NCBI RefSeq assembly: GCF_017301615.1
Contig: NZ_CP059066.1
Location: 1,471,001-1,535,000, forward strand
Direction: 5' to 3'
DNA length: 64,000 nucleotides
Source of the DNA: Koleobacter methoxysyntrophicus
GTDB lineage: Bacteria > Bacillota > Thermosediminibacteria > Koleobacterales > Koleobacteraceae
Part shown: positions 677 to 42,873 of the stretch, one piece after another
Position numbering within the stretch: position 1 is the stretch's first letter
Layout of the letters: each line of letters starts with the position of its first letter
Notes under the pieces: model-generated
The model's database searches: none
The model's input: the letters and a program-made list of their open reading frames with translations, nothing else
Told to the model about the DNA's origin: nothing
Made by a program: the position numbers and the translations under genes

Positions 677-1921
677 ATGGACATCAATGCAGCGAATCAG
701 AAAGCCGTTGAAAAGGTATTGAATGCTCAGCCGGTCCTGGTTGATATTGGAATTGCAGGTGAAGTAATTCCCGGAATGACTAAGAAGACCATACTTCATG
801 CGGGTCCCCCTATAACCTGGCAAAAGATGTCAGGGCCTATGAGGGGGGCGGTAATGGGAGCACTTATCTATGAAGGGCTTGCCGGAGATATCAAAGAAGC
901 TGAAGAACTGGCGGCTTCAGGGGAAATAACCTTTGACCCCTGCCACCATCACAATGCTGTAGGGCCGATGGCAGGGATCGTCTCGGCATCTATGCCCGTA
1001 TTCATAGTGCAAAACAAAGCGGAAGGGAATTATGCCTATTGCACCCTGAATGAAGGATTGGGGAAGGTGTTGAGGTATGGAGCCTATGGCCCTGAGGTCA
1101 TACAAAGGCTGAAATGGATGGAAAAGGTCCTTGCTCCTGCTCTTAAAGAAGCCCTCGAAATTGTAGGAGAAATCAACCTGAAAAACCTGATAGCCCAGGC
1201 CATTCAAATGGGAGACGAATGCCACAACAGGAATAAAGCCGGCACTTCCCTGTTTATGAGGGAAATTGCGCCGGGGCTTGTTCAGACAAAGAATTCCCCG
1301 GAGACCATAGCGGAGATCTTCAAATTTATTTCAGGAAATGATCACTTTTTCCTGAATCTATCAATGCCTGCATGCAAATGCACGATGGATGCCGCCCATG
1401 GAATAGAGAATTCCACTATGGTAACGGCCATGGCGAGAAACGGGACAGAATTCGGTATAAGGGTCAGCGGTTTGGGGGACAGATGGTTTACAGGCCCTGC
1501 TTCGGTAGTTGACGGCCTTTACTTCCCGGGGTATTCTTCAAAGGATGCAAACCCCGATATAGGTGACAGCGTTATTTCCGAAACTGCAGGCATAGGCGGA
1601 TTTGCAATGGCTGCTGCACCTGCCATTGTGAAATTCGTCGGAGGGACAGCGAAGGATGCCATAAATTACACCCTCAGCATGTATGAGATAACCATAGCTG
1701 AAAACAATGCCTTCGGAATACCGGTCTTGGAGTTCCGCGGAACCCCGACAGGCATCGATATCAGAAAGGTCGTTGAAACCGGTATACTCCCTGCAATTAA
1801 TACAGGGATAGCCCATAAAAAACCCGGGGTAGGGCAGGTCGGTGCCGGCCTTGTAAAGCCGCCGGTTAACTGTTTTGAGGATGCGCTGGTAGCTTTTGCT
1901 GAGATGATGGAAAACAAATAA
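677..1921 (+). CDS. DUF1116 / AllG (YlbE)-like carbamoyltransferase subunit
   Basis: A 414-residue protein starting at ATG 677 behind AGGGGGATGA. It closely resembles E. coli YlbE/AllG: LHAGPP near residue 39, SGPMRGAV, CHHHNAVGPMAGI, NEGLGKVLRYGAYG, MGDECHNRNKAG, ARNGTEFGIRVSGLG, and an HK-GVGQVGAGLVKPP end. AllG works with AllF (FdrA) and AllH in E. coli oxamate carbamoyltransferase. No AllH-like (DUF2877) gene is seen here, so the microprotein at 488 may take part instead (inference). The His-rich CHHHNAVGP block is a plausible active-site or metal site. A paralogue of 417 residues lies at 25453. Likely cytosolic and cotranscribed with its neighbours. Confidence 0.88.
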   Translation: MDINAANQKAVEKVLNAQPVLVDIGIAGEVIPGMTKKTILHAGPPITWQKMSGPMRGAVMGALIYEGLAGDIKEAEELAASGEITFDPCHHHNAVGPMAGIVSASMPVFIVQNKAEGNYAYCTLNEGLGKVLRYGAYGPEVIQRLKWMEKVLAPALKEALEIVGEINLKNLIAQAIQMGDECHNRNKAGTSLFMREIAPGLVQTKNSPETIAEIFKFISGNDHFFLNLSMPACKCTMDAAHGIENSTMVTAMARNGTEFGIRVSGLGDRWFTGPASVVDGLYFPGYSSKDANPDIGDSVISETAGIGGFAMAAAPAIVKFVGGTAKDAINYTLSMYEITIAENNAFGIPVLEFRGTPTGIDIRKVVETGILPAINTGIAHKKPGVGQVGAGLVKPPVNCFEDALVAFAEMMENK

Positions 1922-1951
1922 AAAAAATAAAAAGATTTTAAGGAGGAATGC

Positions 1952-2737
1952 ATGATGAGTTTCTTAGACAGGGTTAAACTTTATGACCTTACACAACCGT
2001 TAAGTCATTTAACGCCGCCATGGCCTACCTATGAACCGTTACAGATAAAGTTTTTCAAAAGGCTTGCACCCAACGGGGCCAACGGCCAGCTGTTGACCCA
2101 CAGCAACCACGTAGGCACCCACCTGGACGGTTCCCTTCATTTTTGCACCCACGGCAGGGATATAGCCAGCATTCCGTTAAATGAGCTGGTAGCCCCCGGC
2201 GTAGTAGTAGACCTGAGCGATATAGCAGAAGACTACGGCATATATACATCAAAGGACATAATGGAGAGGGTAGAGGTAAAAAAGGGTGACATCCTCATAA
2301 TCCATACGGGATACCACCACTATTCCTGGGAACAGCCGGAAGCCGATGAGGTAAGGTATATGGTAAAGCACCCCGGCCCGACCATGGAATTTGCCAGATG
2401 GTGTAAAGAAATGGAAATAAAGTGGATCGGTGTAGACTGCGGTTCAGCAGACCATCCCATGAACACCAAGATAAGGGAATGGTGTCCGGCACAGGCTAAA
2501 GAAGCCGACAAATACCTCAAGGAGAAGTACGGCAAGGGCCTTGATGAAATGTTTCCTCCTGACCACTATCAATTAATGCACGTAGAGCTCTTCCCCTATG
2601 ACATAATCCATGCCGAGAACCTGGGCGGTGATATAGATAAGCTTCTGAACAAGAGAACCGTCATAGGCTGCTTCCCGTGGAGGTTCGTAGGCGGAGAATC
2701 CAGCATCTGCAGAATAGTTGCCTTCCATGAAGAATAA
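1952..2737 (+). CDS. cyclase-family metal-dependent hydrolase
   Basis: A 261-residue cyclase-family protein, the group that contains kynurenine formamidase and isatin hydrolase. The metal-site motif is HVGTHLDGSLHF, with His53, His57, Asp59 and His63; most relatives have a Pro where this protein has Ser-Leu. Further family blocks are GDILIIHTGY, GVDCGSADHPMN and FPWRFVGGESS. ATG 1952 and ATG 1955 are both possible starts behind AGGAGG. These enzymes hydrolyse cyclic or acyl amides, so ring opening of a cyclic ureide is a reasonable role in this operon. A paralogue lies at 24209, and a decayed third copy follows the amidase gene at 4668. Confidence 0.85.
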   Translation: MMSFLDRVKLYDLTQPLSHLTPPWPTYEPLQIKFFKRLAPNGANGQLLTHSNHVGTHLDGSLHFCTHGRDIASIPLNELVAPGVVVDLSDIAEDYGIYTSKDIMERVEVKKGDILIIHTGYHHYSWEQPEADEVRYMVKHPGPTMEFARWCKEMEIKWIGVDCGSADHPMNTKIREWCPAQAKEADKYLKEKYGKGLDEMFPPDHYQLMHVELFPYDIIHAENLGGDIDKLLNKRTVIGCFPWRFVGGESSICRIVAFHEE

Positions 2738-2751
2738 GGAGATGTGCCGTA

Positions 2752-3726
2752 ATGGGAAAAACTATAGTAGTAGCTCTGGGGGGCAATGCTATTCTCCAGG
2801 CCGGGGAAAGGGGAACAGCGGCAGAACAGAAAAGGAACATTGAAAACACCGTCAAACAAATAGTTAAACTGATTAAAGATAACCATAGAGTAATTGTAAC
2901 CCATGGGAATGGCCCTCAGGTAGGGAACCTGATGATACAGCAGGAGGCTGCAAAGGGGAAGGTGCCGCCTATGCCCTTAGATGTATGCGGTGCCCAGACC
3001 CAGGGGCAGATCGGTTATATGATTCAGAACTCCCTTGAAAATGAATTCAAAAGACTGGGCATAAACAAAAAAGCCGTAACCCTGATAACACAGGTGCTGG
3101 TGGACAAAAATGACCCAGCTTTTGCAAATCCGACGAAACCGGTAGGGCCTTTTTATACAGAAGAGGAAGCCAGGAGGGCTATGGAGGAAAAGAGCGAAAT
3201 CTGGATAGAAGATAGCGGCAGAGGATGGAGGAGGGTTGTGCCTTCTCCCGATCCCAAAGGGATTGTAGAAAGAGATATAATCAAGAGCCTGGTGGAGAGA
3301 GATTTTGTTGTAATAGCCTCCGGGGGCGGCGGTATCCCGGTTATTGAAGATGCAGACGGCAGCCTTTTAGGGGTTGAGGCAGTGATAGACAAAGACCTGG
3401 CAGGGGAGAAACTGGCCCATGAAGTAGGAGCCGATACCTTTGTAATCCTCACAGATGTTCCGTATGTTGCAATCAACTACGGGACGCCGTCCCAGAAAAA
3501 CCTGGAGAAGGTTACCCTGGCCGAGATGGAGGATTATAAAAAACAGGGCCACTTCAGAGCGGGCAGTATGGGGCCGAAAGTCGAGGCCGTATGCCGTTTT
3601 GTGAGAAGAGGAGGCAAGATGGCTGTAATTGCTTCCCTCGATAAGGCTGTCGATGCCGTTTACGGAAAAACGGGAACGGTGATTGTAAATAATACCGATA
3701 AGCAGCTTATTGAAAAAGCAGGGTAG
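2752..3726 (+). CDS. arcC: carbamate kinase
   Basis: A 324-residue carbamate kinase of the amino-acid-kinase fold. It has VALGGNAIL at the N terminus, THGNGPQVGNL near residue 50, GAQTQGQIGY, GRGWRRVVPSPDP, ASGGGGIPV, VIDKDLAGEKLA, LTDVPYVAINYG and GSMGPKVEA. It transfers phosphate from carbamoyl phosphate to ADP, giving ATP, CO2 and ammonia. No arginine deiminase or ornithine carbamoyltransferase genes are nearby, so its carbamoyl phosphate most likely comes from the FdrA/DUF1116 proteins encoded upstream. The start is ATG 2752 with AAGGAGATG upstream, 14 bases after the cyclase stop. A second carbamate kinase is at 20288. Confidence 0.95.
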   Translation: MGKTIVVALGGNAILQAGERGTAAEQKRNIENTVKQIVKLIKDNHRVIVTHGNGPQVGNLMIQQEAAKGKVPPMPLDVCGAQTQGQIGYMIQNSLENEFKRLGINKKAVTLITQVLVDKNDPAFANPTKPVGPFYTEEEARRAMEEKSEIWIEDSGRGWRRVVPSPDPKGIVERDIIKSLVERDFVVIASGGGGIPVIEDADGSLLGVEAVIDKDLAGEKLAHEVGADTFVILTDVPYVAINYGTPSQKNLEKVTLAEMEDYKKQGHFRAGSMGPKVEAVCRFVRRGGKMAVIASLDKAVDAVYGKTGTVIVNNTDKQLIEKAG

Positions 3727-3768
3727 TCTTCGGAGCATTTTGATTACGTCAGGGGAGGTTGAGGCGAA

Positions 3769-4659
3769 TTGAAGGAATTCGTAGCTGCCGGGGTCCAGAT
3801 TGCTGTAAAACCCAATGATATAGAATATAATACCGAAAAGGTCATATCGTGGTTTGAGAAGGCCGTTAAAGAAAACGGAGCAGAGCTTGTGGTTTTCCCT
3901 GAAACCGTTACGACGGGATTTACCCCAGGGATGACGCCGGAGGAGCTGTATGACCATTTGAGCCCAATAGCTGAGTCGATATCGAAAATCTGTGATGCCG
4001 CCGGGAAACTGAAATCCCATATAATATTCCCCACATATGAAAGGGGGCCCGAGAGAGGTGTTGTTTACAACAGTTCCCTGTTAATTGACGATAACGGGAA
4101 GCTGCTGGGAACCTACAGGAAAACTCACCTGTTCCCTACCGAGAGGATCCAGGGAGGGGGATGGTCCACAGCGGGCAGTCAGGCACCCGTTTATTCCACA
4201 AAACTCGGGAAAATCGGGATGATTATTTGCTATGATGGTGATTTCCCTGAGCTATCAAGGGTCTTAGCTATCAAGGGGGCTGAAATAATAACGAGGCCTT
4301 CTGCCCTTTTGAGGAGTTTTGAAATATGGGATTTAACCAACAGGGCAAGGGCATATGACAATCACGTATATGTAATCGCCGTGAATGCCGTTGGCCCTGA
4401 TGCGGGAAATTATTATTATTTCGGACACAGCATGATAGTTGATCCTATTGCAAGGAAGTTAGCTCAGGGAAGAGGAACTGAAGAGATAATCTATTCAAAG
4501 CTCGATCCTGACCCGATAAAACGGGTCACTTATGGGGCAGATTCACCTATGATTTTTGACCATGTAGAAGACCGAAACCTTTCGGTTTACGGAGAAATCA
4601 TGACTGAAGCGAGATGCCCCTTTGAACCAGCAGAGAGGATTCCATATAAAAAGGGATGA
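3769..4659 (+). CDS. nitrilase-superfamily amidase (carbon-nitrogen hydrolase)
   Basis: A 296-residue carbon-nitrogen hydrolase with the full catalytic triad: Glu45 in VVFPE, Lys118 in YRKTH and Cys154 in IICYDGDFPE. The start is TTG 3769 behind GGGGAGG. The family includes N-carbamoyl amidases, omega-amidases and aliphatic amidases, all releasing ammonia from an amide or ureido bond. In this operon a probable job is deamidation of the amide acid left after carbamoyl transfer; hydrolysis of the ureide itself is an alternative. The cluster B paralogue at 21340 keeps the same triad. The C terminus (VEDRNLSVYG, EPAERIPY) is also shared by both copies, which suggests the same or closely related substrates. 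Confidence 0.9.
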   Translation: MKEFVAAGVQIAVKPNDIEYNTEKVISWFEKAVKENGAELVVFPETVTTGFTPGMTPEELYDHLSPIAESISKICDAAGKLKSHIIFPTYERGPERGVVYNSSLLIDDNGKLLGTYRKTHLFPTERIQGGGWSTAGSQAPVYSTKLGKIGMIICYDGDFPELSRVLAIKGAEIITRPSALLRSFEIWDLTNRARAYDNHVYVIAVNAVGPDAGNYYYFGHSMIVDPIARKLAQGRGTEEIIYSKLDPDPIKRVTYGADSPMIFDHVEDRNLSVYGEIMTEARCPFEPAERIPYKKG

Positions 4660-4667
4660 TTGCTTCT

Positions 4668-4772
4668 CTACACCCCCGGCAGGGATATAGGGTGCATTCC
4701 GTTAGATGAGCGGGGAGATAAGCACCGGGGCAATCCGGTATCTGCTGTATAGTCACTTTCCATAAAGAATAA
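4668..4772 (+). pseudogene. internally deleted relic of a cyclase-family gene
   Basis: Two blocks match the cyclase gene at 1952. About 4669-4712 matches ~2143-2186 (shared GGCAGGGATATAG, then GCATTCCGTTA-ATGAG). About 4730-4772 matches ~2696-2737, the 3' end of the gene (AATCC-G-ATCTGC, then TTCCAT-AAGAATAA). The ~510 bases between them in the intact gene are missing. Frames are broken, so this is a dead remnant. It implies that the cluster once had a second cyclase copy after the amidase gene, or that a duplication has largely been deleted. Confidence 0.75.
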
Positions 4773-4783
4773 GCAGAGAATAA

Positions 4784-4809
4784 GGGCGGGGATAACCTGC
4801 CCTTTTTTA
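4784..4809 (+). terminator. intrinsic terminator after cluster A
   Basis: Stem GGGCGGG / CCTGCCC (one G-U pair) with a 5-base loop, followed by six T. It lies after the amidase gene and the cyclase relic and probably ends the cluster A transcript before the PucR gene. Confidence 0.7.
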
Positions 4810-4842
4810 TAACGCATATGAAATTATAATTAATACTGACTG

Positions 4843-4960
4843 GATACTTTACTCGAGAAACGATAAGCCCGGTTTTGAATGTATGAAACAATAACAAATC
4901 CCGGAGCAATTATTTAGGGTTAAAAACTATGGATGGTGGAGGGTCAAATCGGTTTTTATA
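4843..4960. repeat. dispersed repeat, copy 1 (degenerate)
   Basis: TACTTTACTCGAGAAACG followed by ATAAGC-CGGTT-TGAAT resembles the copies at 25208 and 9775. The distal part GGTGGAGGG, then TTTTTATAA, resembles GGTGGAGGG-TGCCATTTATAA of copy 3. No plausible gene is present. With the relic and the terminator, this accounts for most of the gap 4660-5050. Confidence 0.5.
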
Positions 4961-5050
4961 AAAGATTTTGTTCCAAATTTAAATTAATGAAGGATTTCCT
5001 CTTTCTTTGTAGAAATTATACAAATATAAGTACTTGAAAGGGGAATAGCC

Positions 5051-6727
5051 TTGAAACGAGAACTGGGCATAACGGTCAGAGATGCACTGGAAGAGAAATT
5101 ATTAGGGAAAACCAGGGTTGTTGCCGGCCATAAGGGACTTGAAAGGGTTATTACCCAGGTTAACATTATGGAGGTCCCTGATATTTTAAACTGGGTAAAG
5201 GAAGGGGAACTCCTTTTAACAACGGTTTATTCTATTAAAGATGACAAACGGGCCCTTGAAGAGTTGATTCCCAAACTGAACGAAAAAGGCCTTGCCGGCC
5301 TCGGGATAAAACCCGGCAGATACATTAAGGACATACCTGTGGAAATGATTATCCAGGCCGATGAGTTAAATTTCCCTCTTCTAGAGCTTCCCTTTGAGGT
5401 GTCTTTTACTGATATAATTAATCCTGTACTTAATGAAATTTTTAATAAACAGGCAGCTTTTTTAAAACGTCTTGAAGACGTACACCAGAAATTTATGGAT
5501 GTAGTGCTGGAAGGAGGGGGCCTGCAGGAAATAGCCGATACCCTATCAACAATAGTCAATAATCCTGTTTTGATTAAAGATTATATCTCCGAAAATACGG
5601 CATTTTCATCCTGTAACATTGAAGGCCTTAATCTACGGGATCTGTTCCATGAAGCAGACGAACAGATGCCTTTGCCGGATTACGAAAGGTTTTTTTACTG
5701 TTATGACGAACTGGAGGGCAAAAGGGTTAAGAGGGTTATAACCCCTATAGTTGCAGGCAAAAAGGATTATGGGGCAATATATGTTTGGGAGATTAAAGGT
5801 TCCCTCAGAGGCTATGATTTCAGTGCCATTGAAAGGTGTTCAACCATAGCGGCCCTGGAAATGATTAAGGAACAGGCAGTAGTAGAAGTAGAAACCCGTT
5901 ATAAAAACGAGTTCATAGATGACCTGCTGTCAGGAGACATACGGTCCCAAAAGGCGGCTTTAGAACGGGCCAGGTTTTTCAATTGGGACCTTACCAGAAC
6001 ATATACAGTAATGATCATAAGTTTCTTAAATCTGGACCCATTTTTCAACGGTGATGGGAAAGGGGATATATTGCACCAAAACCAAAAAAACAGGGTGCTG
6101 AGATATGTTCATGCGGTTTTACAGAATAAAAAGATAAATGCCATTATCGGAAACAAAAGCGACAGCATTATCCTTCTCCTTCCGGCGGGAGGAGTGACGG
6201 GACGGGAAGACATAAAGGCGGCAGTTTTTAACCTGGCCGGACAATTTCTAAAGGCCATAGATCAGGGCGCCCCTGATCTTAAAGCGGTTATAGGGATAGG
6301 CAGGCATTATTCAAGCGTTCTGGAATTATGGAAGAGCTTTCAGGAGGCCAAAAAGGCCGTTGAAATAGGGAAAAACGTATCAGAGGGGAGGATAATCCAT
6401 TTTGATGATTTAGGGGTTTTTCGCCTCCTGTACAATTTTGCGTCAGATAAAGAAATAAGACAGTTCTATGACGAGTTTGCACGACCCATTGTGGAATACG
6501 ATAAAAAACACGGGACTGAACTCACAAAAACCCTGGAAACCTTTTACGAATGCAACGGCAACCTGAAAAAGGTTTCTGAAAAACTGTATACCCACTATAA
6601 TACAATTCTTTATAGAATCCAACGGATTCAGGAGATAATAGGGGTTAACCTGGAAAAGGCCTCAGATCGCTTAAGTGTCGAAATAGCCTTAAAACTTATG
6701 AAGGTCATGGAGTATAAGCAGACTTAG
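5051..6727 (+). CDS. PucR-family transcriptional regulator
   Basis: A 558-residue regulator starting at TTG 5051 behind GAAAGGGGAA. The N-terminal PucR domain (~1-125) has RDALEEKLLGKTRVVAGHKG, VNIMEVPDILNW and LLLTT. A middle GGDEF-like region follows (~290-420). The C-terminal PucR helix-turn-helix (~490-550) has ECNGNLKKVSEKLYTHYNTI and YRIQRIQEI. PucR proteins control purine and ureide catabolism in Bacillus and relatives, so this one probably senses a pathway metabolite and regulates cluster A. It sits at the 3' end of cluster A; a paralogue (33256) sits at the 3' end of cluster B. No terminator was recognised after the stop. Confidence 0.9.
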   Translation: MKRELGITVRDALEEKLLGKTRVVAGHKGLERVITQVNIMEVPDILNWVKEGELLLTTVYSIKDDKRALEELIPKLNEKGLAGLGIKPGRYIKDIPVEMIIQADELNFPLLELPFEVSFTDIINPVLNEIFNKQAAFLKRLEDVHQKFMDVVLEGGGLQEIADTLSTIVNNPVLIKDYISENTAFSSCNIEGLNLRDLFHEADEQMPLPDYERFFYCYDELEGKRVKRVITPIVAGKKDYGAIYVWEIKGSLRGYDFSAIERCSTIAALEMIKEQAVVEVETRYKNEFIDDLLSGDIRSQKAALERARFFNWDLTRTYTVMIISFLNLDPFFNGDGKGDILHQNQKNRVLRYVHAVLQNKKINAIIGNKSDSIILLLPAGGVTGREDIKAAVFNLAGQFLKAIDQGAPDLKAVIGIGRHYSSVLELWKSFQEAKKAVEIGKNVSEGRIIHFDDLGVFRLLYNFASDKEIRQFYDEFARPIVEYDKKHGTELTKTLETFYECNGNLKKVSEKLYTHYNTILYRIQRIQEIIGVNLEKASDRLSVEIALKLMKVMEYKQT

Positions 6728-6982: not shown

Positions 6983-7636
6983 GTGGAAAAAATCCGGTCT
7001 ATTAAAGATGCAGTTGAGAGAATTAAAGATGGAATGACCGTAATGGTGGGCGGCTTTTTAGGGGTAGGTACGCCTGAAGCCCTTGTGGATGCCCTTGTTG
7101 CAAAAGGAGTAAAAAATCTTACCGTAATTTGCAATGATTCCGCTTTCCCAGACAGAGGTATCGGAAAACTTATCGTCAACAAGCAGATTAAAAAGTTAAT
7201 TACATCCCATATCGGGACAAACCCTGAGACGGGAAGGCAGATGAATGAAGGTGAAACAGAGGTAGAGCTGGTCCCGCAGGGCACCCTTGCCGAGAGGATT
7301 AGAGCGGCTGGGGCAGGCCTGGGTGGAATCCTAACACCGACAGGGGTAGGGACCATAGTAGAACAGGGCAAGAAAAAGCTAGAAATTAATGGAAAGGAAT
7401 ATTTGCTTGAATTACCTATTAAAGCAGATATCGCTTTGTTAAAAGCAGAAAAAGCTGATAAAAAAGGCAATCTGATTTACAGGAAATCAGCGAGGAACTT
7501 TAACCCCATAATGGCTACTGCTGCCGACTTTGTTATAGTTCAGGTTGACGAAATCGTAGATGTGGGAGAGATTGACCCTGATGATGTAATGACTCCCGGA
7601 ATCTTTGTCGATATGATTGTAAGGGGGGATAATTAA
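6983..7636 (+). CDS. 3-oxoacid CoA-transferase, subunit A (AtoD/ScoA-like)
   Basis: A 217-residue alpha subunit of a family I CoA-transferase. It shows [64 protein letters not shown] and [15 protein letters not shown]. The start is GTG 6983 behind a GGGGGTG site. With subunit B it moves CoA between an acyl-CoA and a short-chain acid such as acetoacetate, butyrate or, conceivably, malonate. The stop overlaps the start of subunit B by one base. The sigma-54-type promoter and the AtoE-like carrier suggest uptake and activation of a short-chain acid. Confidence 0.92.
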
Positions 7637-8298
7637 TGGATAAAAAGGCAAGAAGGGAATTAATAGCAAAGAGGATAGCAAAGGAGTTTAAAGATGGTGA
7701 TATAGTCAATCTGGGGATAGGTATGCCTACACTGGTAGGGAATTTTGTCCCGGATGATGTGGAAATTATACTGCAGTCGGAGAACGGTTTTGTCGGCCTC
7801 GGACCGGCTCCTGCACCGGGAGAAGAAGACCCTGATTTAACTAATGCCGGAGGGCAGCCGGTAACGATTAAACCGGGTGGAGCCTTTTTTGACAGTGCTA
7901 TGTCTTTTTCGATAATAAGGGGCGGCCATGTGGATGCTACAGTATTGGGGGCTCTGGAAGTAGATGAAAAAGGGAACCTGGCTAACTGGATGATACCCGG
8001 GAAGATGGTACCCGGTATGGGCGGGGCTATGGACCTGGTTACTGGTGCCAAAAAGGTTATTATTGCTATGGAGCATACGGCTAAGGATGGTTCTCCCAAG
8101 ATACTTAAAGAATGCACACTCCCCCTTACTGGTAGAGAGGTTGTAGATCTAATCGTCACTGATATGGGGGTAATGGAAGTAACCGATAAGGGAATCGTTC
8201 TGAAAGAAATAGCTCCCGGCCTTACTGTTGAAGATGTCCAAAAAGCTACAGAAGCCAAACTTATAATAGACGAGAACCTGAAGGAAATGGAGGTTTAA
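7636..8298 (+). CDS. 3-oxoacid CoA-transferase, subunit B (AtoA/ScoB-like)
   Basis: A 220-residue beta subunit. It contains NLGIGMPTLVGNFVP near the start, the SENGFVGLGPAP block whose Glu carries the CoA thioester in this family, GGHVDATVLGALEVD, MVPGMGGAMDLV and LPLTGREVVD. ATG 7636 overlaps the TAA of subunit A, so translation is probably coupled. It forms the active heteromer with the preceding protein. Substrate preference cannot be read from the sequence. Confidence 0.93.
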   Translation: MDKKARRELIAKRIAKEFKDGDIVNLGIGMPTLVGNFVPDDVEIILQSENGFVGLGPAPAPGEEDPDLTNAGGQPVTIKPGGAFFDSAMSFSIIRGGHVDATVLGALEVDEKGNLANWMIPGKMVPGMGGAMDLVTGAKKVIIAMEHTAKDGSPKILKECTLPLTGREVVDLIVTDMGVMEVTDKGIVLKEIAPGLTVEDVQKATEAKLIIDENLKEMEV

Positions 8299-8348
8299 AA
8301 ATTAAGTCTTTCACCAACCGGGTATTTTGAAAAAGGAGGCGCAACTTA

Positions 8349-9512
8349 ATGATAAGACGGCTCAGCCGGTTTTTTGTTAAACTGGTAGAGAAATACCTTC
8401 CTGATCCCTTCCTTTTTGCTGTTATATTGACCTTAATAGTTTATGTAATGGGCATAGTGATTGCCGGTAATTCCCCACTTGAGATGATGATTCATTGGGG
8501 TAATGGCTTCTGGAATCTCCTGGCTTTTTCCATGCAGATGGTATTGGTCCTGGTAACAGGCCACGTGCTGGCCAGCAGCCCGTTTTTTAAGAGGTTTATG
8601 AAAAGGGTTGCCTTATCAATAAAAAATCCTGCCCAAGCTATAATGCTTACCTCATTCATATCAGCTGTAGCCTGCTGGATTAACTGGGGTTTCGGGCTGG
8701 TCATAGGGGCGCTTTTAGCGAAAGAGATTGCTAAAAACAACAGAGGTATAGATTACAGGCTTCTGATCGCTAGTGCTTATTCAGGATTTGTTGTCTGGCA
8801 CGCGGGGCTATCAGGTTCAGCACCATTACAGGTAGCAACTGCCGGGCATTTCCTCGAGAAGACAATTGGACTCGTGCCAACAAGCCAGACCCTTTTTGCT
8901 CCATTTAACCTGATTCCAGCATTTGTTATAATAATTACATTACCGTTCATAAATAAAATGATGGTGCCGTCAGAGGAGGAAGTAGTTGAAATCGATCCAT
9001 CTCTTTTAGTAGAAGAGAAAGAAGAAAAGATTGTTGTAAGCACACCTGCAGATAAAATGGAAAACAGCCCCGTATTATCGGTAATAATAGGTATTTTAGG
9101 GTTAGGATATATAATCTATTACTTCTCTACCAAGGGATTTGCCCTTAACCTAAATATAGTAAACTTTATATTCATGTTCCTGGGTATACTGTTCCATGGA
9201 ACCCCCAGGAGATATCTCGATGCCCTCTTAGAGGCTGTTAAAGGCGCGGGAGGAATAATACTTCAGTTCCCCTTCTATGCGGGAATAATGGGTATGATGG
9301 TTAGTTCAGGATTGGCAGCTATCATATCGCAATGGTTCGTTAACATTTCAACTCCTGCAACTTTTCCGTTTTTCACGTTCTTGAGTGCAGGACTTGTTAA
9401 CTTCTTCGTGCCTTCCGGGGGAGGTCAGTGGGCAGTTCAAGGCCCCATTATGATTCCTGCAGGCTTGGAATTAGGTGTAGATACAGGTAAGACTGTAATG
9501 GCGGTAGCATAG
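8349..9512 (+). CDS. short-chain fatty acid carrier, AtoE family, cut short by an in-frame TAG
   Basis: A hydrophobic transporter of the AtoE family, starting at ATG 8349 behind AAAGGAGGCG. It resembles E. coli AtoE from the start (RLSRFFVKLVEKYLPDPFLF, GNGFWNLLAFSMQMVLVLVTGH, INWGFGLVIGALLAKE) to the C-terminal region (FPFYAGIMGMM, FFVPSGGGQWAVQGP). The open frame stops at TAG 9510-9512, after MAVA. The same frame continues with GDAWTNMIQPFWALPALG, the normal AtoE C terminus. The stop therefore replaces an internal codon (Tyr in E. coli AtoE, commonly Trp in relatives as I recall) and removes ~50 residues with the last membrane segment. The product is probably inactive unless the stop is read through or is a sequencing error. 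Confidence 0.85.
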   Translation: MIRRLSRFFVKLVEKYLPDPFLFAVILTLIVYVMGIVIAGNSPLEMMIHWGNGFWNLLAFSMQMVLVLVTGHVLASSPFFKRFMKRVALSIKNPAQAIMLTSFISAVACWINWGFGLVIGALLAKEIAKNNRGIDYRLLIASAYSGFVVWHAGLSGSAPLQVATAGHFLEKTIGLVPTSQTLFAPFNLIPAFVIIITLPFINKMMVPSEEEVVEIDPSLLVEEKEEKIVVSTPADKMENSPVLSVIIGILGLGYIIYYFSTKGFALNLNIVNFIFMFLGILFHGTPRRYLDALLEAVKGAGGIILQFPFYAGIMGMMVSSGLAAIISQWFVNISTPATFPFFTFLSAGLVNFFVPSGGGQWAVQGPIMIPAGLELGVDTGKTVMAVA

Positions 9513-9662
9513 GGGGATGCGTGGACTAACATGATCCAGCCCTTCTGGGCCTTACCGGCATTGGGGATAGCAGGTTTGGGGGCAAGGGATATTATGGGAT
9601 ACTGTATAGTAGTTCTCCTTTACACAGGTATTATAGTAGGTTTAAGCTTACTCCTACTATGA
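9513..9662 (+). pseudogene. detached C-terminal part of the AtoE-like carrier
   Basis: Forty-nine codons follow in the same frame as the carrier upstream of TAG 9510, ending at TGA 9660-9662. The translation begins GDAWTNMIQPFWALP and ends with GYCIVVLLYTGIIVGLSL, the conserved AtoE C terminus. No ribosome-binding site or start supports separate translation. Confidence 0.8.
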
Positions 9663-10283: not shown

Positions 10284-10661
10284 TTGAACTTTCAGAATCT
10301 TCAATTTCTAATAATTAGGAAAACATTAATCGCGGCATCCTTTATATCTATAATTATACTGTATGCATTTGATGAAATAACTTCACTATTCTGGTTTTTT
10401 TATGGTATCATTATAAGCATATTAAACTTTAGATTATTAGCTTTAAATGTAAAAAAGTCCATTAGAATGACCCCTGAAAAATCCAGGATATATGCATTTA
10501 CTGGATATACCGTCAGGTATGTTCTGAATTTTATTGCCTTTATGGTTGCCGTTAAATCTTCGGCAACCGGCTTATTACTGGCTGCTGCAGGATATTTGCT
10601 CATCAAAGCTGTAATAATTGCTGACCCATTTTTAAATCACCTGAAATTCAGGAAGGAGTAG
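10284..10661 (+). CDS. atpI: ATP synthase subunit I (AtpI-like)
   Basis: A 125-residue protein with about four membrane helices and a positively charged tail (NHLKFRKE). Its position between atpZ and atpB and its hydropathy pattern fit the ATP synthase I family, chaperones for c-ring assembly. Sequence conservation in this family is low, so context carries much of the call. TTG 10284 is the likely start; GGGGAAGTGAG lies upstream. It lies 8 bases after atpZ and 8 bases before atpB. Confidence 0.75.
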   Translation: MNFQNLQFLIIRKTLIAASFISIIILYAFDEITSLFWFFYGIIISILNFRLLALNVKKSIRMTPEKSRIYAFTGYTVRYVLNFIAFMVAVKSSATGLLLAAAGYLLIKAVIIADPFLNHLKFRKE

Positions 10662-10669
10662 GATAAAAG

Positions 10670-11329
10670 GTGGATTTCTTCCCCCGTGTGATTTTTTCCT
10701 TTAAAGCCTTCGGTCAAACTGTTGAAATTACTGAAACTGTAATAGTAACATGGTTTATAATGGCGCTGCTAACACTGGTGGCCATATACAGCACCCGGAA
10801 ACTGAAAACCCTACCCGAAGGATTACAAAATGGGGTTGAGATTTTTGTGGAAGGCGTAGAATGGCTGATAGTAAATACAATGGGGGAAAAAGGAAGGGGG
10901 TTTATTCCGTTTATTGGCAGTCTCGGTTTATTCCTCCTTTCAGCAAACCTTATTGGGCTGGCTGCCTTAAGGCCGCCAACTTCTGACTTGAGTACGACCC
11001 TTGCCCTTGCAACTATTGTTTTTGTACTGACCCAGTATTATGGTATAAAGGAAAAGGGGCTAATTTCATATTTAAAAGGGTTTGCCCGACCCCTGCCATT
11101 AATGTTACCCCTCAACATAATAGGGGAGCTGGCGAATCCATTTTCCATGGCGTTTCGTCTCTTCGGCAATATCCTGGGAGGCGTAATTATAATGGGGCTC
11201 CTTTACAGGGCAGCACCCGTATTAATCCCCGTGCCCCTCCATATATATTTCGATATTTTTGCGGGGATAATCCAGACTTTTATTTTTATTATGCTTGCAA
11301 TGGTCTTTATTTCAATGGCCATGGATTAA
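10670..11329 (+). CDS. atpB: F-type ATP synthase subunit a
   Basis: A 219-residue Fo a subunit, starting at GTG 10670 behind AAGGAG. The conserved helix PLNIIGELANPFSMAFRLFGN carries the essential stator Arg163; GIIQTFIFIMLAMVFIS forms the last helix. It provides the ion half-channels against the c-ring. It is the only F-type a subunit in the window, yet the c, b, delta, alpha, gamma, beta and epsilon genes lie ~25.7 kb away at 36986-43235. It is followed after 29 bases by V-ATPase genes, an unusual arrangement. Confidence 0.93.
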   Translation: MDFFPRVIFSFKAFGQTVEITETVIVTWFIMALLTLVAIYSTRKLKTLPEGLQNGVEIFVEGVEWLIVNTMGEKGRGFIPFIGSLGLFLLSANLIGLAALRPPTSDLSTTLALATIVFVLTQYYGIKEKGLISYLKGFARPLPLMLPLNIIGELANPFSMAFRLFGNILGGVIIMGLLYRAAPVLIPVPLHIYFDIFAGIIQTFIFIMLAMVFISMAMD

Positions 11330-11358
11330 GAATATATAGATAAGGTGGTGATGGAACA

Positions 11359-11671
11359 TTGACAATCGAAGAAATAAAAGCTGTTAAAGAAGCTGAAAAG
11401 GAAGCTGAAAAAATCCGCATCGATGCCCAGAAGAGGGCAGCCCAGATTATCAAGGAGGCCAAGAATAAGGCAGAAGAACTCATCGAACAAGCGATAAAAG
11501 AAGCCGAACATGAAGGAACAAATATGGTAAGGGATGCCGAAGAATCCAGTTCAAAGGAGGTTGACAATATAAAGAAGGAATATGAACAAAAATATAAAGT
11601 TATGGAAGAACAGGCTTTGAAAAATATGGATAAAGCCGTAAACTTTATTATGGAGAGGATAGTGACGACCA

Positions 11672-11685
<14 letters not shown>
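11359..11685 (+). CDS. ntpF: V-type ATPase peripheral stalk subunit G/H (NtpF-like)
   Basis: A 108-residue, highly charged coiled-coil protein (repeated EAEKEAEKI, AQKRAAQIIKEA, KAEELIEQAIKEAEHEG). It matches the small peripheral-stalk subunit that opens bacterial V-ATPase operons. The start is TTG 11359 behind AAGGTGGTG. The last codons overlap the start of ntpI by 14 bases. It pairs with subunit E to form the stator stalk. Primary sequence is low in complexity, so position is important evidence. Confidence 0.82.
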
Positions 11686-14090
<2,405 letters not shown>

Positions 14091-14103
14091 GGGAGTGGGC
14101 TAA

Positions 14104-14706
14104 ATGGAAGGAATGGAGAAAATTAAAGAGAGGATTTTGGAGGATGCCCGCCGTGAAGCCGATAAAATAATCCGGGGAGCAGAAAAGGAAGCCCAGAATA
14201 TACTTGACCATGCTGAGAAAACTGCCCGGCAAAGGAAAAAGGCCTTATATGAAAAGGCACAAAAGGATTCTCAGGAGGCCAGGAGGAAAACCCTGGCTAT
14301 GGCTGAACTTGAGATGCGTAAAGGACTGCTGGCAGTAAAACAGAAAATGGTCGATACAGCCTTCGAGAGAGCCCTGGAAAAACTCCGGAATCTGGAAGGC
14401 AAAGATTACGAAAATATGATCATGGGGATGATGGAAAAGGCCGTTGAAACGGGGAATGAAGAGATAATTCTTTCCCCCAATGACCTTAAAAAGTTTAAAC
14501 CGGAATTTTTGTCAACTGTTAACCAAAGGCTTTCAAAGAAAGGAATAAAATCAAACCTTAAGATTGCCGAGGAAACCAGAAATATCCAGGGAGGTTTTAT
14601 TTTAAAAGGTGAAGGGGTAGAAGTCAACAATTCTTTTGAATCCATCATAAGAATGGAAAGAGATGAAATAGAATCCCAGGTTGCAGCTATCCTCTTCGGG
14701 GAATAA
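14104..14706 (+). CDS. ntpE: V-type ATPase subunit E
   Basis: A 200-residue peripheral stalk subunit. The N-terminal half is a charged coiled coil (ILEDARREADKIIRGAEKEA, AEKTARQRKKALYEKAQ). The C-terminal head has the family ending NIQGGFILKGEGVEVNNSFE and RDEIESQVAAILFGE. ATG 14104 follows GGGAGTGGG. It forms the stator stalk with NtpF and sits between K and C as in E. hirae. Confidence 0.92.
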   Translation: MEGMEKIKERILEDARREADKIIRGAEKEAQNILDHAEKTARQRKKALYEKAQKDSQEARRKTLAMAELEMRKGLLAVKQKMVDTAFERALEKLRNLEGKDYENMIMGMMEKAVETGNEEIILSPNDLKKFKPEFLSTVNQRLSKKGIKSNLKIAEETRNIQGGFILKGEGVEVNNSFESIIRMERDEIESQVAAILFGE

Positions 14707-14719
14707 AGGGGGGACCTCA

Positions 14720-15721
14720 ATGTCAAGCAACGAATATCTATATGCAGTTTCGAGGATAAAAGCCCTGGAAACAAAATTGCTTACTAAAAGCATCGTGGAA
14801 AGAATGCTGGAGGCCCCGACAGCCCAGGACGCCTTGAAAATCCTGGGAGAAACGGAGTACGGAACCTCTTTTGGAGAAGTGGAAAGTGTCTATGACTTTG
14901 AAAAGGTTATAAACAATGAACTTAAAAAGACGTATAAGGTAATTGATGAATCTACAAAAAACCCTCTTTTTACCAGACTGTCAACCCTTAGGTATGATTT
15001 CCACAATCTCAAGGTTTTGATAAAAGGGGAGTACCTCGGTGAGGATTATCAGAGGATTACCACGGAACTGGGGACGGTTCCTGTAGATAAAATTTTAAGG
15101 GCTGTTCGGGAAATGGATTATAAAGACCTGCCGCCTTTTATGAAACAGGCAGCAGAAGAAGCAGTGGTAGATTTCGAATTCCACAAAGACCCCCAGAGGA
15201 TCGATCTTATACTGGACAGACACCTTTTTAGAAATTTATATAAAACAGCCAGAGAAACGGGTCATAGATTCCCGGTAGAGGTAATTTCCACAGAGATTGA
15301 CCTCATAAATATCAATACCTTTTTAAGGGCCAGGAAAATGGGCCGGGACGCCCGGTTTTTGGAGAGTGCTCTCCTGGATAACGGGACACTGGATAAATCC
15401 CTGTTCCTCGAGAGCCTTAATGAGCCTTTAGGGGGCTTTATAGAAAGACTTTCCATGGGCAGATACGGCGAACTGGCCGGTGAAGGCATTCAATCAGTAG
15501 AAGAAACTAAAAGCACCACAGCCCTTGAAAAGATGATGGATGATTTCCTCCTGAATATGGTTAAAAAGGGCAAACTTGCCCCTTTCGGGGTAGAGCCCAT
15601 TATCGGTTACATTAAAGCCAGAGAAAATGAGGGGAAAATCATCAGGATGATAATGGTTGGCAAGATCAATCAGGTCCCTGCTGATAAAATAAGAGAAAGG
15701 TTACGTGATGTCTATGTATAA
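14720..15721 (+). CDS. ntpC: V-type ATPase subunit C
   Basis: A 333-residue subunit C (V0 d-like), the socket between the membrane ring and the central stalk. Recognisable blocks: EYLYAVSRIKALETKLL, DFHNLKVLIKGEYLGED, INTFLRARKMGRDA, FGVEPIIGYIKARENE and the C-terminal [23 protein letters not shown] (quoted in parts). ATG 14720 follows AAGGGGGGACC. Its stop overlaps the start of the next gene by 14 bases. Confidence 0.92.
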   Translation: MSSNEYLYAVSRIKALETKLLTKSIVERMLEAPTAQDALKILGETEYGTSFGEVESVYDFEKVINNELKKTYKVIDESTKNPLFTRLSTLRYDFHNLKVLIKGEYLGEDYQRITTELGTVPVDKILRAVREMDYKDLPPFMKQAAEEAVVDFEFHKDPQRIDLILDRHLFRNLYKTARETGHRFPVEVISTEIDLININTFLRARKMGRDARFLESALLDNGTLDKSLFLESLNEPLGGFIERLSMGRYGELAGEGIQSVEETKSTTALEKMMDDFLLNMVKKGKLAPFGVEPIIGYIKARENEGKIIRMIMVGKINQVPADKIRERLRDVYV

Positions 15722-16055
15722 GCTGGGTATAATCGGAGATAAGGATACGGTTCTGGCTTTTAAAGCCCTGGGGCTTTCTACCTATCCGGTGGTTGAGCCC
15801 GGGGAAGCTGAGCGGGCCTTAAAAAAGATGGTCACGGAAAATTATGCAGTTGTCTTTATTACAGAGCAGATAGCGGAAGAGATAAAGGATACTGTCGATG
15901 AGTATTCTCAAAATATCTTGCCGTCAATTATCCTTATTCCCAATAACCAGGGTTCTACGGGAATCGGCTTGAAGAAAATAAAAAGCTCTGTAGAAAAGGC
16001 TATAGGAGTAGATATTTTATTTGAAAGTGAGGGAGAGGAAATTGAAAGAAGGTAG
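15708..16055 (+). CDS. ntpG: V-type ATPase subunit F (NtpG)
   Basis: A 115-residue central stalk subunit. It has the family start [20 protein letters not shown] and the block [14 protein letters not shown], and ends in [20 protein letters not shown] 15708 lies 7 bases after AAAGG; GTG 15705 is also possible. It overlaps ntpC upstream and ntpA downstream. It binds subunit D in the rotor. Confidence 0.9.
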
Positions 16056-17814
16056 GATTACCAAGGTTTCTGGTCCCCTTGTTGTTGCAGAAGGCCTTGA
16101 CAACGCCAAGATGTTCGATGTGGTAAGGGTCGGGCCTATGCGGCTCATCGGGGAAGTTATAGAAATCCGCGGCAGCAAGGCTTCTATTCAGGTTTATGAA
16201 GAGACTGCCGGATTAAGCCCCGGAGACCCGGTAGTAACTACGGGTGAACCACTGAGCGTTGAACTGGCTCCGGGTATGCTTGAAGGGATCTTTGATGGTA
16301 TTCAGAGGCCCTTAAATCTAATCGAAGAAAAAGCAGGGGCGTTTATTACAAGGGGTATAGAAGTACCCTCTATAGATAGAGAAAAGAAATGGAAGTTCGA
16401 GCCCAGGGTTAAGCCGGGAGATAAGGTGCAGGGCGGAGATATAATCGGTACCGTTCAGGAAACGGTAATCGTAGAGCACAGGATAATGGTGCCCCACGGA
16501 ATAGAGGGGACTGTGGAAGAGATTAAATCAGGGGAATTTACTGTTGTTGATACCATTGCCAGGATAAAGACCGCTGAGGGCATAAAAGAAATACAGATGC
16601 TTCAAAAATGGCCTGTTCGTAAGATAAGGCCGTATAAAAAGAAACTGGCTCCGGAAGAGCCGATGTCAACAGGGCAGAGGGTTATCGATACCTTTTTCCC
16701 TGTAGCTAAAGGAGGAACGGCATGTATCCCTGGGCCTTTCGGAAGCGGGAAAACTGTTGTCCAGCACCAGCTTGCAAAATGGGCCGATGCCGACATTGTG
16801 GTATATATAGGGTGCGGAGAACGGGGTAATGAGATGACCGACGTTCTTCTGGAATTCCCGGAACTGACAGACCCTAAGAGCGGCGAACCGCTTATGAAAC
16901 GGACCGTTCTTATTGCCAATACCTCAAATATGCCCGTTGCGGCCAGGGAGGCTTCAATATACACGGGGATCACAATAGCCGAGTATTTCAGAGACATGGG
17001 ATACAGTGTTGCCCTGATGGCCGATTCTACCTCCCGCTGGGCAGAAGCCTTAAGGGAGATGTCAGGCCGTCTTGAGGAAATGCCCGGTGAGGAAGGTTAT
17101 CCCGCATATCTTGCTTCGAGGCTGGCTGAGTTTTATGAGAGGGCCGGCAAGGTTGTGTGTGCGGGAAGCGATGACCGCATAGGTGCCCTAACGGCCGTTG
17201 GCGCCGTATCACCGCCGGGTGGGGACCTTTCTGAACCCGTTACCCAGGGTACATTGAGGGTTGTTAAGGTGTTCTGGGCCCTGGATGCAGCCCTGGCATA
17301 TGCCCGACACTTCCCGGCCATAAACTGGCTGACCAGTTATTCCCTGTATCTGGATAAGATCGAGGAATGGATAGACAAACAGATTAACCAGGAATGGAGC
17401 AGTTTAAGGGCTGAGGCAATGAGATTGCTGCAGGAAGAATCAGAACTTCAGGAAATCGTAAGGCTGGTAGGTATTGATGCCCTTTCGGTAAAGGACAGGT
17501 TGACCCTGGAGTCAGCCAAGTCCATTAGGGAGGATTATCTCCACCAGAATGCCTTTCACGAAGTGGATACCTATGCCTCCCTCAAGAAACAGTACAGCAT
17601 GTTAAAGCTTATAATTATGTTCCACAATGAGGCCAACAAAGCCATTGATGCCGGTGCGGCCTTTAAAGATATAGTAAACCTCCCGGTAAGGGAAAAAATA
17701 GCCAGAGCGAAATATATTCCTGAAGACAGGATAGAAGAAATAAATGCTATACAGAAGGATATCAAAGAACAGCTTGAGGCCCTGGTGACAGAGGGAGGGA
17801 TGTTAAGTGCTTAA
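16042..17814 (+). CDS. ntpA: V-type ATPase catalytic subunit A
   Basis: A 590-residue catalytic subunit. TTG 16042 behind GGGAGAGGAA gives the normal N terminus [18 protein letters not shown]. Walker A is GPFGSGKT at residues 231-238, where many V-type A subunits have Cys in place of this Ser. Other blocks: [49 protein letters not shown]. The insert at ~115-190 ([16 protein letters not shown]) is the A-type non-homologous region. It hydrolyses or synthesises ATP in the A3B3 head. Confidence 0.96.
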
Positions 17815-19192
17815 GGAATATAAAACCGTTAGAGAAGTTGCCGGCCCCCTGATGCTGGTAGAACAGGTCGAAGGGGTAAAATACGATGAACTGGTGGAAA
17901 TAGAGCTTGCAAACGGTGAAACCAGGAGGGGCAAGGTCCTTGAAGTAAACGGTGATAAAGCCCTGGTGCAGCTCTTTGAAGGGTCAACGGGTATTAATAT
18001 CTATGACGCCAGGGTTAGATTCCTCGGTAAAAGTATAGAGTTACCCGTATCGATGGACATCCTCGGCAGGGTTTTCGATGGGTTCGGGAGGCCCAGAGAC
18101 AACGGCCCGAGGATTATCCCTGAAAAAAGGCTGGATATAAACGGTAACCCTATCAATCCTACGGCCAGGGACTACCCGTCGGAGTTTATTCAAACGGGTA
18201 TATCTGCCATCGACGGGCTGAATACCCTTGTGCGCGGTCAGAAGCTTCCCCTCTTCTCGGGTTCAGGTCTGCCCCACTCACAGCTGGCGGCCCAGATTGC
18301 CCGTCAGGCCAGGGTGCTGGGAGGAGAAGAAAGCAGATTCGCTATAGTATTCGCTGCTATCGGTATAACCTTTGAAGAAGCCGACTTTTTCATTTCCGAT
18401 TTTACAAGGACCGGTGCGATAGACCGCTCTGTCCTGTTTATGAACCTGGCCAATGACCCGGCCATCGAGCGTATAGCGACACCCCGTATGGCGTTGACGG
18501 CAGCGGAATACCTGGCTTATGAAAAGGATATGCACGTCCTTGTAATACTTACAGATATAACCAATTACTGCGAGGCATTGAGGGAGATCTCCGCTGCCCG
18601 TAAAGAGGTGCCCGGCCGCCGCGGTTATCCGGGTTACCTTTACACCGACCTTTCTACGATCTATGAGAGGGCAGGAAGAATTAAGGGCAAAAAGGGTTCT
18701 ATAACCCAGATACCGATCCTGACCATGCCTGAAGATGATAAAACCCACCCTATCCCCGACCTTACGGGATATATCACAGAAGGTCAGATAATCCTCAACA
18801 GGGACCTTTTCAGGAAGGGTATAAACCCGCCTATAGATGTGCTGCCGTCCTTATCCCGTCTCAAGGATAAGGGTATAGGTGCAGGCAAAACCCGGGAGGA
18901 CCATGCGGATACTATGAACCAGCTGTATGCTGCATATGCCCGGGGCAAGGAGGCCAAGGAACTGGCAGCCATCCTCGGAGAAGCGGCTTTGAGTGATGTA
19001 GATAAGCTCTTTGCCAAATTTGCCGATGAATTTGAAAAACGGTACGTATCTCAGGGAGAATACGAAAACCGGAGTATTATCGATACTTTAACTATCGGGT
19101 GGGAGCTTTTAACCATTCTTCCCAAGGCAGAACTCAAGCGGATCAGGGATGAATACATCGATAAGTACCTGCCCGAAAAAGGGGATGCTTAG
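17807..19192 (+). CDS. ntpB: V-type ATPase subunit B
   Basis: A 461-residue non-catalytic nucleotide-binding subunit. GTG 17807 overlaps the 3' end of ntpA and follows GAGGGAGGG. It has [54 protein letters not shown] in place of a Walker A loop, and [20 protein letters not shown]. This lack of a P-loop is normal for B subunits. It forms the A3B3 head with ntpA. Confidence 0.96.
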
Positions 19193-19195
19193 GCC

Positions 19196-19834
19196 GTGGA
19201 AATTAGAGTTAATCCAACCCGGATGGAGTTAACCAAACTTAAGAAGCGATTAAAGATAGCCAAAAGGGGCCATAAGCTCTTGAAAGATAAGCAGGATGAG
19301 CTGATTAAGAAGTTCGTGGACCTGGTAAAAAGGAACAAGGAACTGAGGGAACAGGTGGAGAAGGAGCTCACCTCAGCCCTCAGGGACTTTGTTATGGCCA
19401 GGGCCGTAATGCCCGGCGAGGTCCTTGAAGAGAGCCTGATGTATCCTGTAGGCAGTGTCGATATAGAGGTAGGCCGCAAGAATATTATGAGCGTTATTGT
19501 CCCGACTATTAAAGCCGTCCAGCAGCAGGAGAACAAAAACATCTTTTCTTACGGCTTCTACAATACCACAGGTCAGCTGGATGATGCCATAACGGTCCTT
19601 TCGGGGATTCTGCCCAAGCTTCTTGAGCTTGCAGAAGTGGAAAAGACCTGTCAGCTTATGGCTGCCGAAATAGAAAAGACACGCCGAAGGGTTAATGCCT
19701 TAGAGCATATAATGATACCGCAGATGACGGATAAAATTAAGTATATAACTATGAAACTGGATGAAAATGAAAGAGGAAATCTCACCCGCCTGATGAAGAT
19801 AAAGGAAATGGTCATGGTGGAAGGCAGGGTATAG
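19196..19834 (+). CDS. ntpD: V-type ATPase subunit D (central stalk)
   Basis: A 212-residue central shaft subunit starting at GTG 19196, three bases after ntpB. It has VNPTRMELTKLKKRLKIAKR and GHKLLKDKQDELIKKF at the N terminus and RRRVNALEHIMIPQ near the C terminus, all typical of subunit D. Long helices dominate at both ends. It rotates inside the A3B3 head and ends the operon, before a strong terminator. Confidence 0.95.
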   Translation: MEIRVNPTRMELTKLKKRLKIAKRGHKLLKDKQDELIKKFVDLVKRNKELREQVEKELTSALRDFVMARAVMPGEVLEESLMYPVGSVDIEVGRKNIMSVIVPTIKAVQQQENKNIFSYGFYNTTGQLDDAITVLSGILPKLLELAEVEKTCQLMAAEIEKTRRRVNALEHIMIPQMTDKIKYITMKLDENERGNLTRLMKIKEMVMVEGRV

Positions 19835-36880: not shown

Positions 36881-37528
<648 letters not shown>

Positions 37529-37539
37529 AAAGCATAGAT

Positions 37540-37566
37540 GCGGAGCTAACGGTAAGCGGTGGAGTA
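37540..37566. repeat. possible fragment of the dispersed repeat
   Basis: GCGGAGCTAACGG, then GCGGTGGAG, recalls GCGGAGCTAAGAGC and CAGGTGGAG of the repeat copy at 25208. It lies in the short gap between the two c-subunit genes. The match is short. Confidence 0.3.
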
Positions 37567-37574
37567 TTATTTAG

Positions 37575-37862
<288 letters not shown>

Positions 37863-37876
37863 GGAAGGTGTCGGGG

Positions 37877-38359
37877 ATGATTAATAAGTATACCTATATC
37901 TTTCAGATAGTAAATTTTATCGTCCTGTATCTCCTTCTCAGGCGTTTTTTATTTACTCCTATAACCCGTTTCATGGAAGACAGGGCCAGAAAAATTCAGG
38001 AAGAAAAGGAACGTGCTGAAGCAGAAAGAAAAAATGCCGGTAAAATCAGGAAGGAATATGAAGAGAAGATTAAAAGCATTGACCGGCAAGCTGAAATAAG
38101 ATTTAAAGAAGCAGTAAGGGAAGGGGAAAAGCAGGGAAGGGAAATAATATCGGCAGCTAAAGCCAGGGCCCGAAGCATAATAAATGATGGTTACAGGGAA
38201 CTGGAACGGGAAAGGGAAAAAGCTCTAAGGGAAATGAAACATCAGATGGTTTCCCTATCGGTGGCAGCAGCTTCACGTATTATAGAAAGAGAACTGGACG
38301 AAAAAAAGCACAGGGCCCTGGTAGATGATTTTATATCAAAGGCAGGTAACCCGAAATGA
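37877..38359 (+). CDS. atpF: F-type ATP synthase subunit b
   Basis: A 160-residue b subunit. One N-terminal membrane helix (YIFQIVNFIVLYLLLRRFLF) is followed by a long charged coiled coil (RKIQEEKERAEAERKNAGKI) and ends in ERELDEKKHRALVDDFI. ATG 37877 is preferred; GTG 37868 in the same frame is possible. It forms the peripheral stalk. It overlaps atpH by four bases (ATGA). Confidence 0.92.
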   Translation: MINKYTYIFQIVNFIVLYLLLRRFLFTPITRFMEDRARKIQEEKERAEAERKNAGKIRKEYEEKIKSIDRQAEIRFKEAVREGEKQGREIISAAKARARSIINDGYRELEREREKALREMKHQMVSLSVAAASRIIERELDEKKHRALVDDFISKAGNPK

Positions 38360-38922: not shown

Positions 38923-38963
38923 TTCAGTGGGGGTATCTGCACTCCCCCACTAGTAGAATCATC
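38918..38963 (+). promoter_or_regulatory. strong two-part hairpin at the atpH stop
   Basis: GATGATTC / GAATCATC (outer 8 bp) and GTGGGGG / CCCCCAC (inner 7 bp). It includes the atpH stop codon and ends 48 bases before atpA. No T run follows, so it is probably not a terminator. It could be the scar of a small mobile element or a control of the atpH-atpA junction. Confidence 0.6.
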
Positions 38964-39010
38964 ATTAAATTTAAAACAGAATTATGGAAGCAGGTCAGGG
39001 GTGTTTTGTA

Positions 39011-40534: not shown

Positions 40535-40561
40535 TAATACAGATATATATAAGGTGATGAT

Positions 40562-42873
<2,312 letters not shown>

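What the first reader, a model, noticed from the sequence alone, without database searches (positions are those of the whole stretch)
8349..9662. AtoE-like carrier broken by one in-frame TAG
TAG at 9510 sits inside the conserved MAVA-GDAWTNMIQPFW block, and the frame is intact to TGA 9660. A single base change from Trp (TGG) or Tyr would explain it. This looks like a fresh loss of function, or readthrough.
Basis: partly seen in the sequence, partly recalled or inferred. Interest (0 to 1): 0.55.

Follow-up and report, generated by a model that had tools for sequence, protein, structure and literature searches.

The report
Fatty-acid transporter gene cut by stop
A gene for a short-chain fatty acid transporter in this bacterium carries one stop codon near its end where nearly all relatives have tryptophan; it is most likely a very recent loss of the gene, or a sequencing slip, and not a new way of reading the code.

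Summary
An AtoE-type short-chain fatty acid carrier (PF02667) starts at 8349, is stopped by TAG at 9510-9512, and continues in frame to TGA 9660-9662; both pieces match one Pfam model end to end. In 85 homologues the codon there is TGG in 82, TAT in 2 and TTC in 1, never a stop. The genome gives no support for reading UAG as an amino acid: no pyrrolysyl-tRNA synthetase over cut-off, no MttB, none of 51 tRNAs found has a CTA anticodon, release factor 1 is present, and TAG ends 15 of 59 other ORFs counted in the window. The rest of the gene has not decayed: 126 of 127 strongly conserved columns are kept, as in intact genes, which puts the lesion below about 1% neutral divergence. AlphaFold places codon 388 inside a helix of an ion-transporter-superfamily fold; the truncated protein would lose half of that helix, a short helix and the last long helix, so it is probably inactive. 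Best explanation: a very recent nonsense mutation in the third gene of an atoDAE-like operon. A single-base sequencing error cannot be excluded. Read-through is likely at trace level only. Interest is low.

The parts
6983..7636 (+). CoA-transferase subunit (AtoD-like), intact, upstream of atoE
   Evidence: PF01144, 259.6 bits; same order upstream of atoE in G001 and G003
7636..8298 (+). CoA-transferase subunit (AtoA-like), intact, overlaps the previous gene by one base
   Evidence: PF01144, 182.5 bits; same order upstream of atoE in G001 and G003
8349..9509 (+). atoE-like transporter, 387 codons before the stop; AGGAGG ribosome site at 8334-8339
   Evidence: PF02667 positions 1-403, 500.6 bits; sequence
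9510..9512 (+). in-frame TAG at codon 388, where 82 of 85 homologues have TGG
9513..9662 (+). remaining 49 codons of atoE and its own TGA stop; no start codon with a ribosome site at the usual distance seen
   Evidence: PF02667 positions 405-453, 77.3 bits

Best explanation
The gene is an atoE-type short-chain fatty acid (or acetoacetate-like) carrier, third in an atoD-atoA-atoE-like operon, that has just been inactivated by a single-base change which turned a conserved Trp codon into TAG. Translation ends after residue 387 by RF1; the product lacks half of a helix, the short helix after it and the last long helix, and is probably inactive. Shown: the stop, the intact frame on both sides, the Trp in relatives, the lack of decay, the absence of any UAG-decoding system found. 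Inferred: that the base is real, that the truncated protein does not work, and the substrate.
For: One stop in a collinear frame. Codon 388 is TGG in 82 of 85 homologues and a stop in none. Same gene order, CoA-transferase pair then atoE, in the two nearest genomes with a whole gene, G001 and G003. No decay: 1 of 104 conserved columns changed before the stop and 0 of 23 after it; the other 83 homologues have medians of 1 and 0. In a neutral simulation, no further stop and no loss at 126 conserved columns has probability 0.22 at 0.5% divergence and 0.044 at 1%. RF1 present at 563.6 bits, cut-off 423.25. TAG is an ordinary stop here: 16 of 60 window ORFs counting this one. The tail is strongly conserved in relatives, and codon 388 lies in predicted helix 379-396, followed by 398-408 and 412-436. 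Single in-frame stops in this family occur elsewhere: 2 of 55 matches, from 50 of 398 phylum genomes, the other a TGA at a different site.
Against: A sequencing error would look the same; no reads and no second assembly of the species were available. The lack of decay also fits a working gene that was misread, or a stop that is read through. The nearest homologues are only about 72-74% identical, so the change cannot be placed on a fine tree.
Confidence: 0.62

Rival explanations
1. Sequencing or assembly error: the organism has a sense codon there and an intact, working atoE.
For: Only one base needs to be wrong, and the gene shows no decay at all. The site lies at a run of five G.
Against: The genome is a single contig rated 100% complete, and 52 of 52 ABC_tran and 23 of 23 HATPase_c matches have no inner stop, so it is not error-ridden; this does not test a single base.
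Confidence: 0.29
2. Read-through or recoding: UAG at codon 388 is decoded as an amino acid often enough to make a useful amount of full-length carrier.
For: The tail keeps all 23 conserved columns. The base after the stop is G, which raises read-through in E. coli reporters (PMC11126739, section 10 read).
Against: PylS not found over cut-off (33.6 against 178.15 bits), MttB absent, none of 51 tRNAs found has anticodon CTA, three pattern hits for a CTA tRNA are not tRNAs, RF1 present, TAG is a common stop, downstream RNA folds no better than shuffles, z 0.58. In the same paper TAG reporters averaged 0.03% of wild type at 37 C and 0.80% at 25 C (passages). None of 85 homologues shares the stop. 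Caveat: the tRNA list is incomplete (no Ile-GAT or Ala-TGC found; 150 of 208 candidates scored).
Confidence: 0.07
3. The 387-residue product is itself a working carrier, or the two pieces are made separately and assemble.
For: 387 of 437 residues remain in frame.
Against: The lost part is among the most conserved of the family (for example G389 D390 A391 W392 T393 N394 Q397 P398 F399 W400 invariant in the 38-row alignment) and includes the last long helix. The first in-frame ATG after the stop (9531) has no ribosome site at the usual distance and would start after GDAWTN.
Confidence: 0.02

Closest known systems
AtoE / SCFA_trans family (Pfam PF02667)
   Same: Whole-length match, 590 bits over positions 1-453; downstream of a CoA-transferase pair as in atoDAE operons (operon name recalled).
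   Different: One in-frame TAG at codon 388, which none of 85 homologues has.
Ion-transporter superfamily carriers: AbgT (YdaH 4r0c, MtrF 4r1i), DASS/INDY (6wtw, 4f35)
   Same: The predicted fold matches these among the best in the PDB: 4r0c E 3.3e-6, 4r1i 1.3e-5, 6wtw 2.2e-4; superfamily names recalled.
   Different: TM-scores are about 0.5 and identity 12-16%, so a shared general fold, not the same family; no PDB relative by sequence.
Pyrrolysine (UAG) decoding
   Same: An in-frame UAG in an anaerobe-like genome of a phylum in which pyl genes are known (recalled).
   Different: No PylS over cut-off, no MttB, no CTA tRNA found.
Bacterial pseudogene with a single nonsense mutation
   Same: One stop, frame otherwise intact, relatives intact.
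   Different: No decay yet; whether the base is real is untested.

Membership tests
AtoE / SCFA_trans (PF02667) | Full-length match to the family model over its cut-off | tested here: met
   590 bits, cut-off 27, positions 1-453, read through the stop; 500.6 and 77.3 bits for the two pieces
AtoE / SCFA_trans (PF02667) | Ion-transporter-superfamily fold | tested here: met
   Model mean pLDDT 90.5; Foldseek hits to YdaH, MtrF, INDY with TM about 0.5. The model is of the read-through protein
AtoE / SCFA_trans (PF02667) | Transport of short-chain fatty acids | not testable with these tools
   No assay
Pseudogene by nonsense mutation | Stop inside a frame that is intact in relatives | tested here: met
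   0 of 85 homologues have a stop at the codon or elsewhere in the matched frame
Pseudogene by nonsense mutation | The base is real in the organism | not testable with these tools
   No reads or second assembly
Pseudogene by nonsense mutation | Signs of relaxed constraint (not required if very recent) | tested here: not met
   Conserved columns kept as in intact genes; expected if the change is very recent
Pyrrolysine or amber-suppressor decoding | PylS gene | tested here: not met
   Best match 33.6 bits, cut-off 178.15
Pyrrolysine or amber-suppressor decoding | tRNA with CTA anticodon | tested here: inconclusive
   0 of 51 tRNAs found and 0 of 3 pattern hits; the list lacks Ile-GAT and Ala-TGC, so it is not complete

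The most novel reading that the evidence does not exclude
UAG at codon 388 is decoded by an unrecognised route (for example a near-cognate tRNA in a leaky context), so that the cell makes a small amount of full-length carrier and the stop acts as a dimmer on fatty acid transport.
Probability: 0.04. Interest if true: 0.5.

Novelty: new member of a known kind. Interest (0 to 1): 0.1.

Why it matters
If the base is real, the strain has probably lost its only AtoE-type carrier although the CoA-transferase pair beside it is intact; this would matter to anyone who predicts its fatty acid metabolism from the genome. It says nothing new about the genetic code.

Tried and rejected
Pyrrolysine: rejected. 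Amber-suppressor tRNA: not found, with the gap in the tRNA list stated. Recoding signal by RNA structure after the stop: none (z 0.58). A shared stop in relatives: none of 85; the one other stop-bearing copy in the phylum sample, a TGA in G269, lies at query residue 342, not 388. A 3' atoE remnant in G002 (L015) at first looked like the same split gene, because a TAG stands in it four codons further on; there the 5' part is absent and a thiolase gene and a hairpin-like repeat lie in front, so it is a deletion remnant or an assembly join. dS between the window gene and relatives is saturated or near it, so dN/dS could not date the change. Viral contigs gave no relative. No PDB relative by sequence. 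Paper searches: AtoE (1 listing, off topic), read-through (one paper followed: passages, section 10), pseudogene searches (nothing), pyrrolysine (listing only, nothing on this case seen).

Rows dropped: the two most distant homologues (L014, L038) were left out of the conserved-column counts, leaving 83 others; they are among the 85. The structure used 37 of the 80 loci, picked for diversity. The 80 loci are the best kept of 587 relatives found. The 60 ORFs were picked by eye from the 101.

Full report
The frame from ATG 8349 has one stop, TAG 9510-9512 at codon 388, and runs on to TGA 9660-9662. The two pieces match PF02667 positions 1-403 and 405-453, and the place is the only strong member of the family in the genome, 590 bits against 40 or less for the next five matches.

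Relatives. 80 loci from named genomes and five from unnamed relatives were aligned to the gene. The codon at position 388 is TGG in 82 of 85, TAT in 2 and TTC in 1. No homologue has a stop in the matched frame. The two nearest genomes with a whole gene, G001 (same family) and G003 (same order), have TGG and the same order of genes, a CoA-transferase pair directly upstream; over all 85 loci, 21 have the second CoA-transferase gene within 2.5 kb on the same strand, before or after atoE (some loci are short). In a sample of 398 genomes of the phylum, 50 have the family at E 1e-40 or better, with 55 matches; two of these 55 hold one inner stop: this one and a TGA in G269, which lies at another site, query residue 342.

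Age. Of columns kept by at least 95% of the other homologues, the window gene breaks 1 of 104 before the stop and 0 of 23 after it; the other 83 have medians of 1 and 0. Under neutral change the chance of no further stop and no loss at the 126 kept columns is 0.22 at 0.5% divergence and 0.044 at 1%. The stop is therefore recent, or not real, or without effect. dS to relatives is saturated or near it and gives no date.

Decoding. PylS is not found over its cut-off and MttB is absent. RF1 is present. 51 tRNA genes were found by RF00005, and ARAGORN reads an ordinary anticodon in all 51, none CTA or TTA. A pattern for a CTA tRNA gave three places, none a tRNA. The list is not complete: Ile-GAT and Ala-TGC are missing and 150 of 208 candidates were scored. 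TAG ends 16 of 60 window ORFs, this one counted. Two large families show no inner stops, 52 of 52 and 23 of 23 matches. RNA behind the stop is not unusually structured. A study in E. coli reports mean TAG read-through of 0.03% of wild type at 37 C, 0.80% at 25 C and 0.49% at 18 C, and that G after the stop raises it (PMC11126739; passages, section 10). The window stop is followed by G, so trace read-through is likely but would give little carrier (inference).

Consequence. The model of the read-through protein (38 sequences, mean pLDDT 90.5, pTM 0.89) has helices 379-396, 398-408 and 412-436 at its end; codon 388 is inside the first. The first PDB match is an integrative model labelled MLEN-METQ (9a59), then the AbgT carriers YdaH and MtrF and DASS carriers such as LaINDY, TM about 0.5: the ion-transporter superfamily. 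By analogy with these (recalled), the lost part would include one side of the substrate site. The lost GDAWTN..QPFW block is invariant in the alignment apart from the two residues between. Loss of function is therefore likely, not shown.

Verdict. A very recent nonsense mutation is the best reading (0.62); a sequencing error is the main rival (0.29); working read-through is unlikely (0.07); a functional short or split carrier is least likely (0.02). The finding is ordinary.

Noticed in passing
window 10284-19834 and 36926-42873: Two rotary ATPase operons 17 kb apart: a V/A-type one (G/H 11359, I 11672, K 13593, A 16021) and an F-type one (b 37868, alpha 38984, gamma 40562). The only F-type subunit a (PF00119) found in the genome lies at 10670, with AtpI at 10284, directly in front of the V/A-type operon and not in the F-type one.
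   Followed up: partly
window 36926-37862: Two ATP-synt_C (subunit c) genes in a row in the F-type operon, a 200-aa one with two matched stretches and a 91-aa one.
   Followed up: no
L015 1501-1650 (G002, C31): A 3' atoE remnant of about 45-49 codons behind a thiolase gene and a hairpin-like inverted repeat, in a genome of the same order; L084 and L091 have thiolase, CoA-transferase pair and atoE in that order, so a deletion of the middle would give this arrangement.
   Followed up: partly
window 677-6727: Upstream of the ato-like genes lie AllG-type (oxamate carbamoyltransferase), cyclase, amino acid kinase, CN hydrolase and PucR regulator genes, which looks like a purine or allantoin breakdown cluster.
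   Followed up: no
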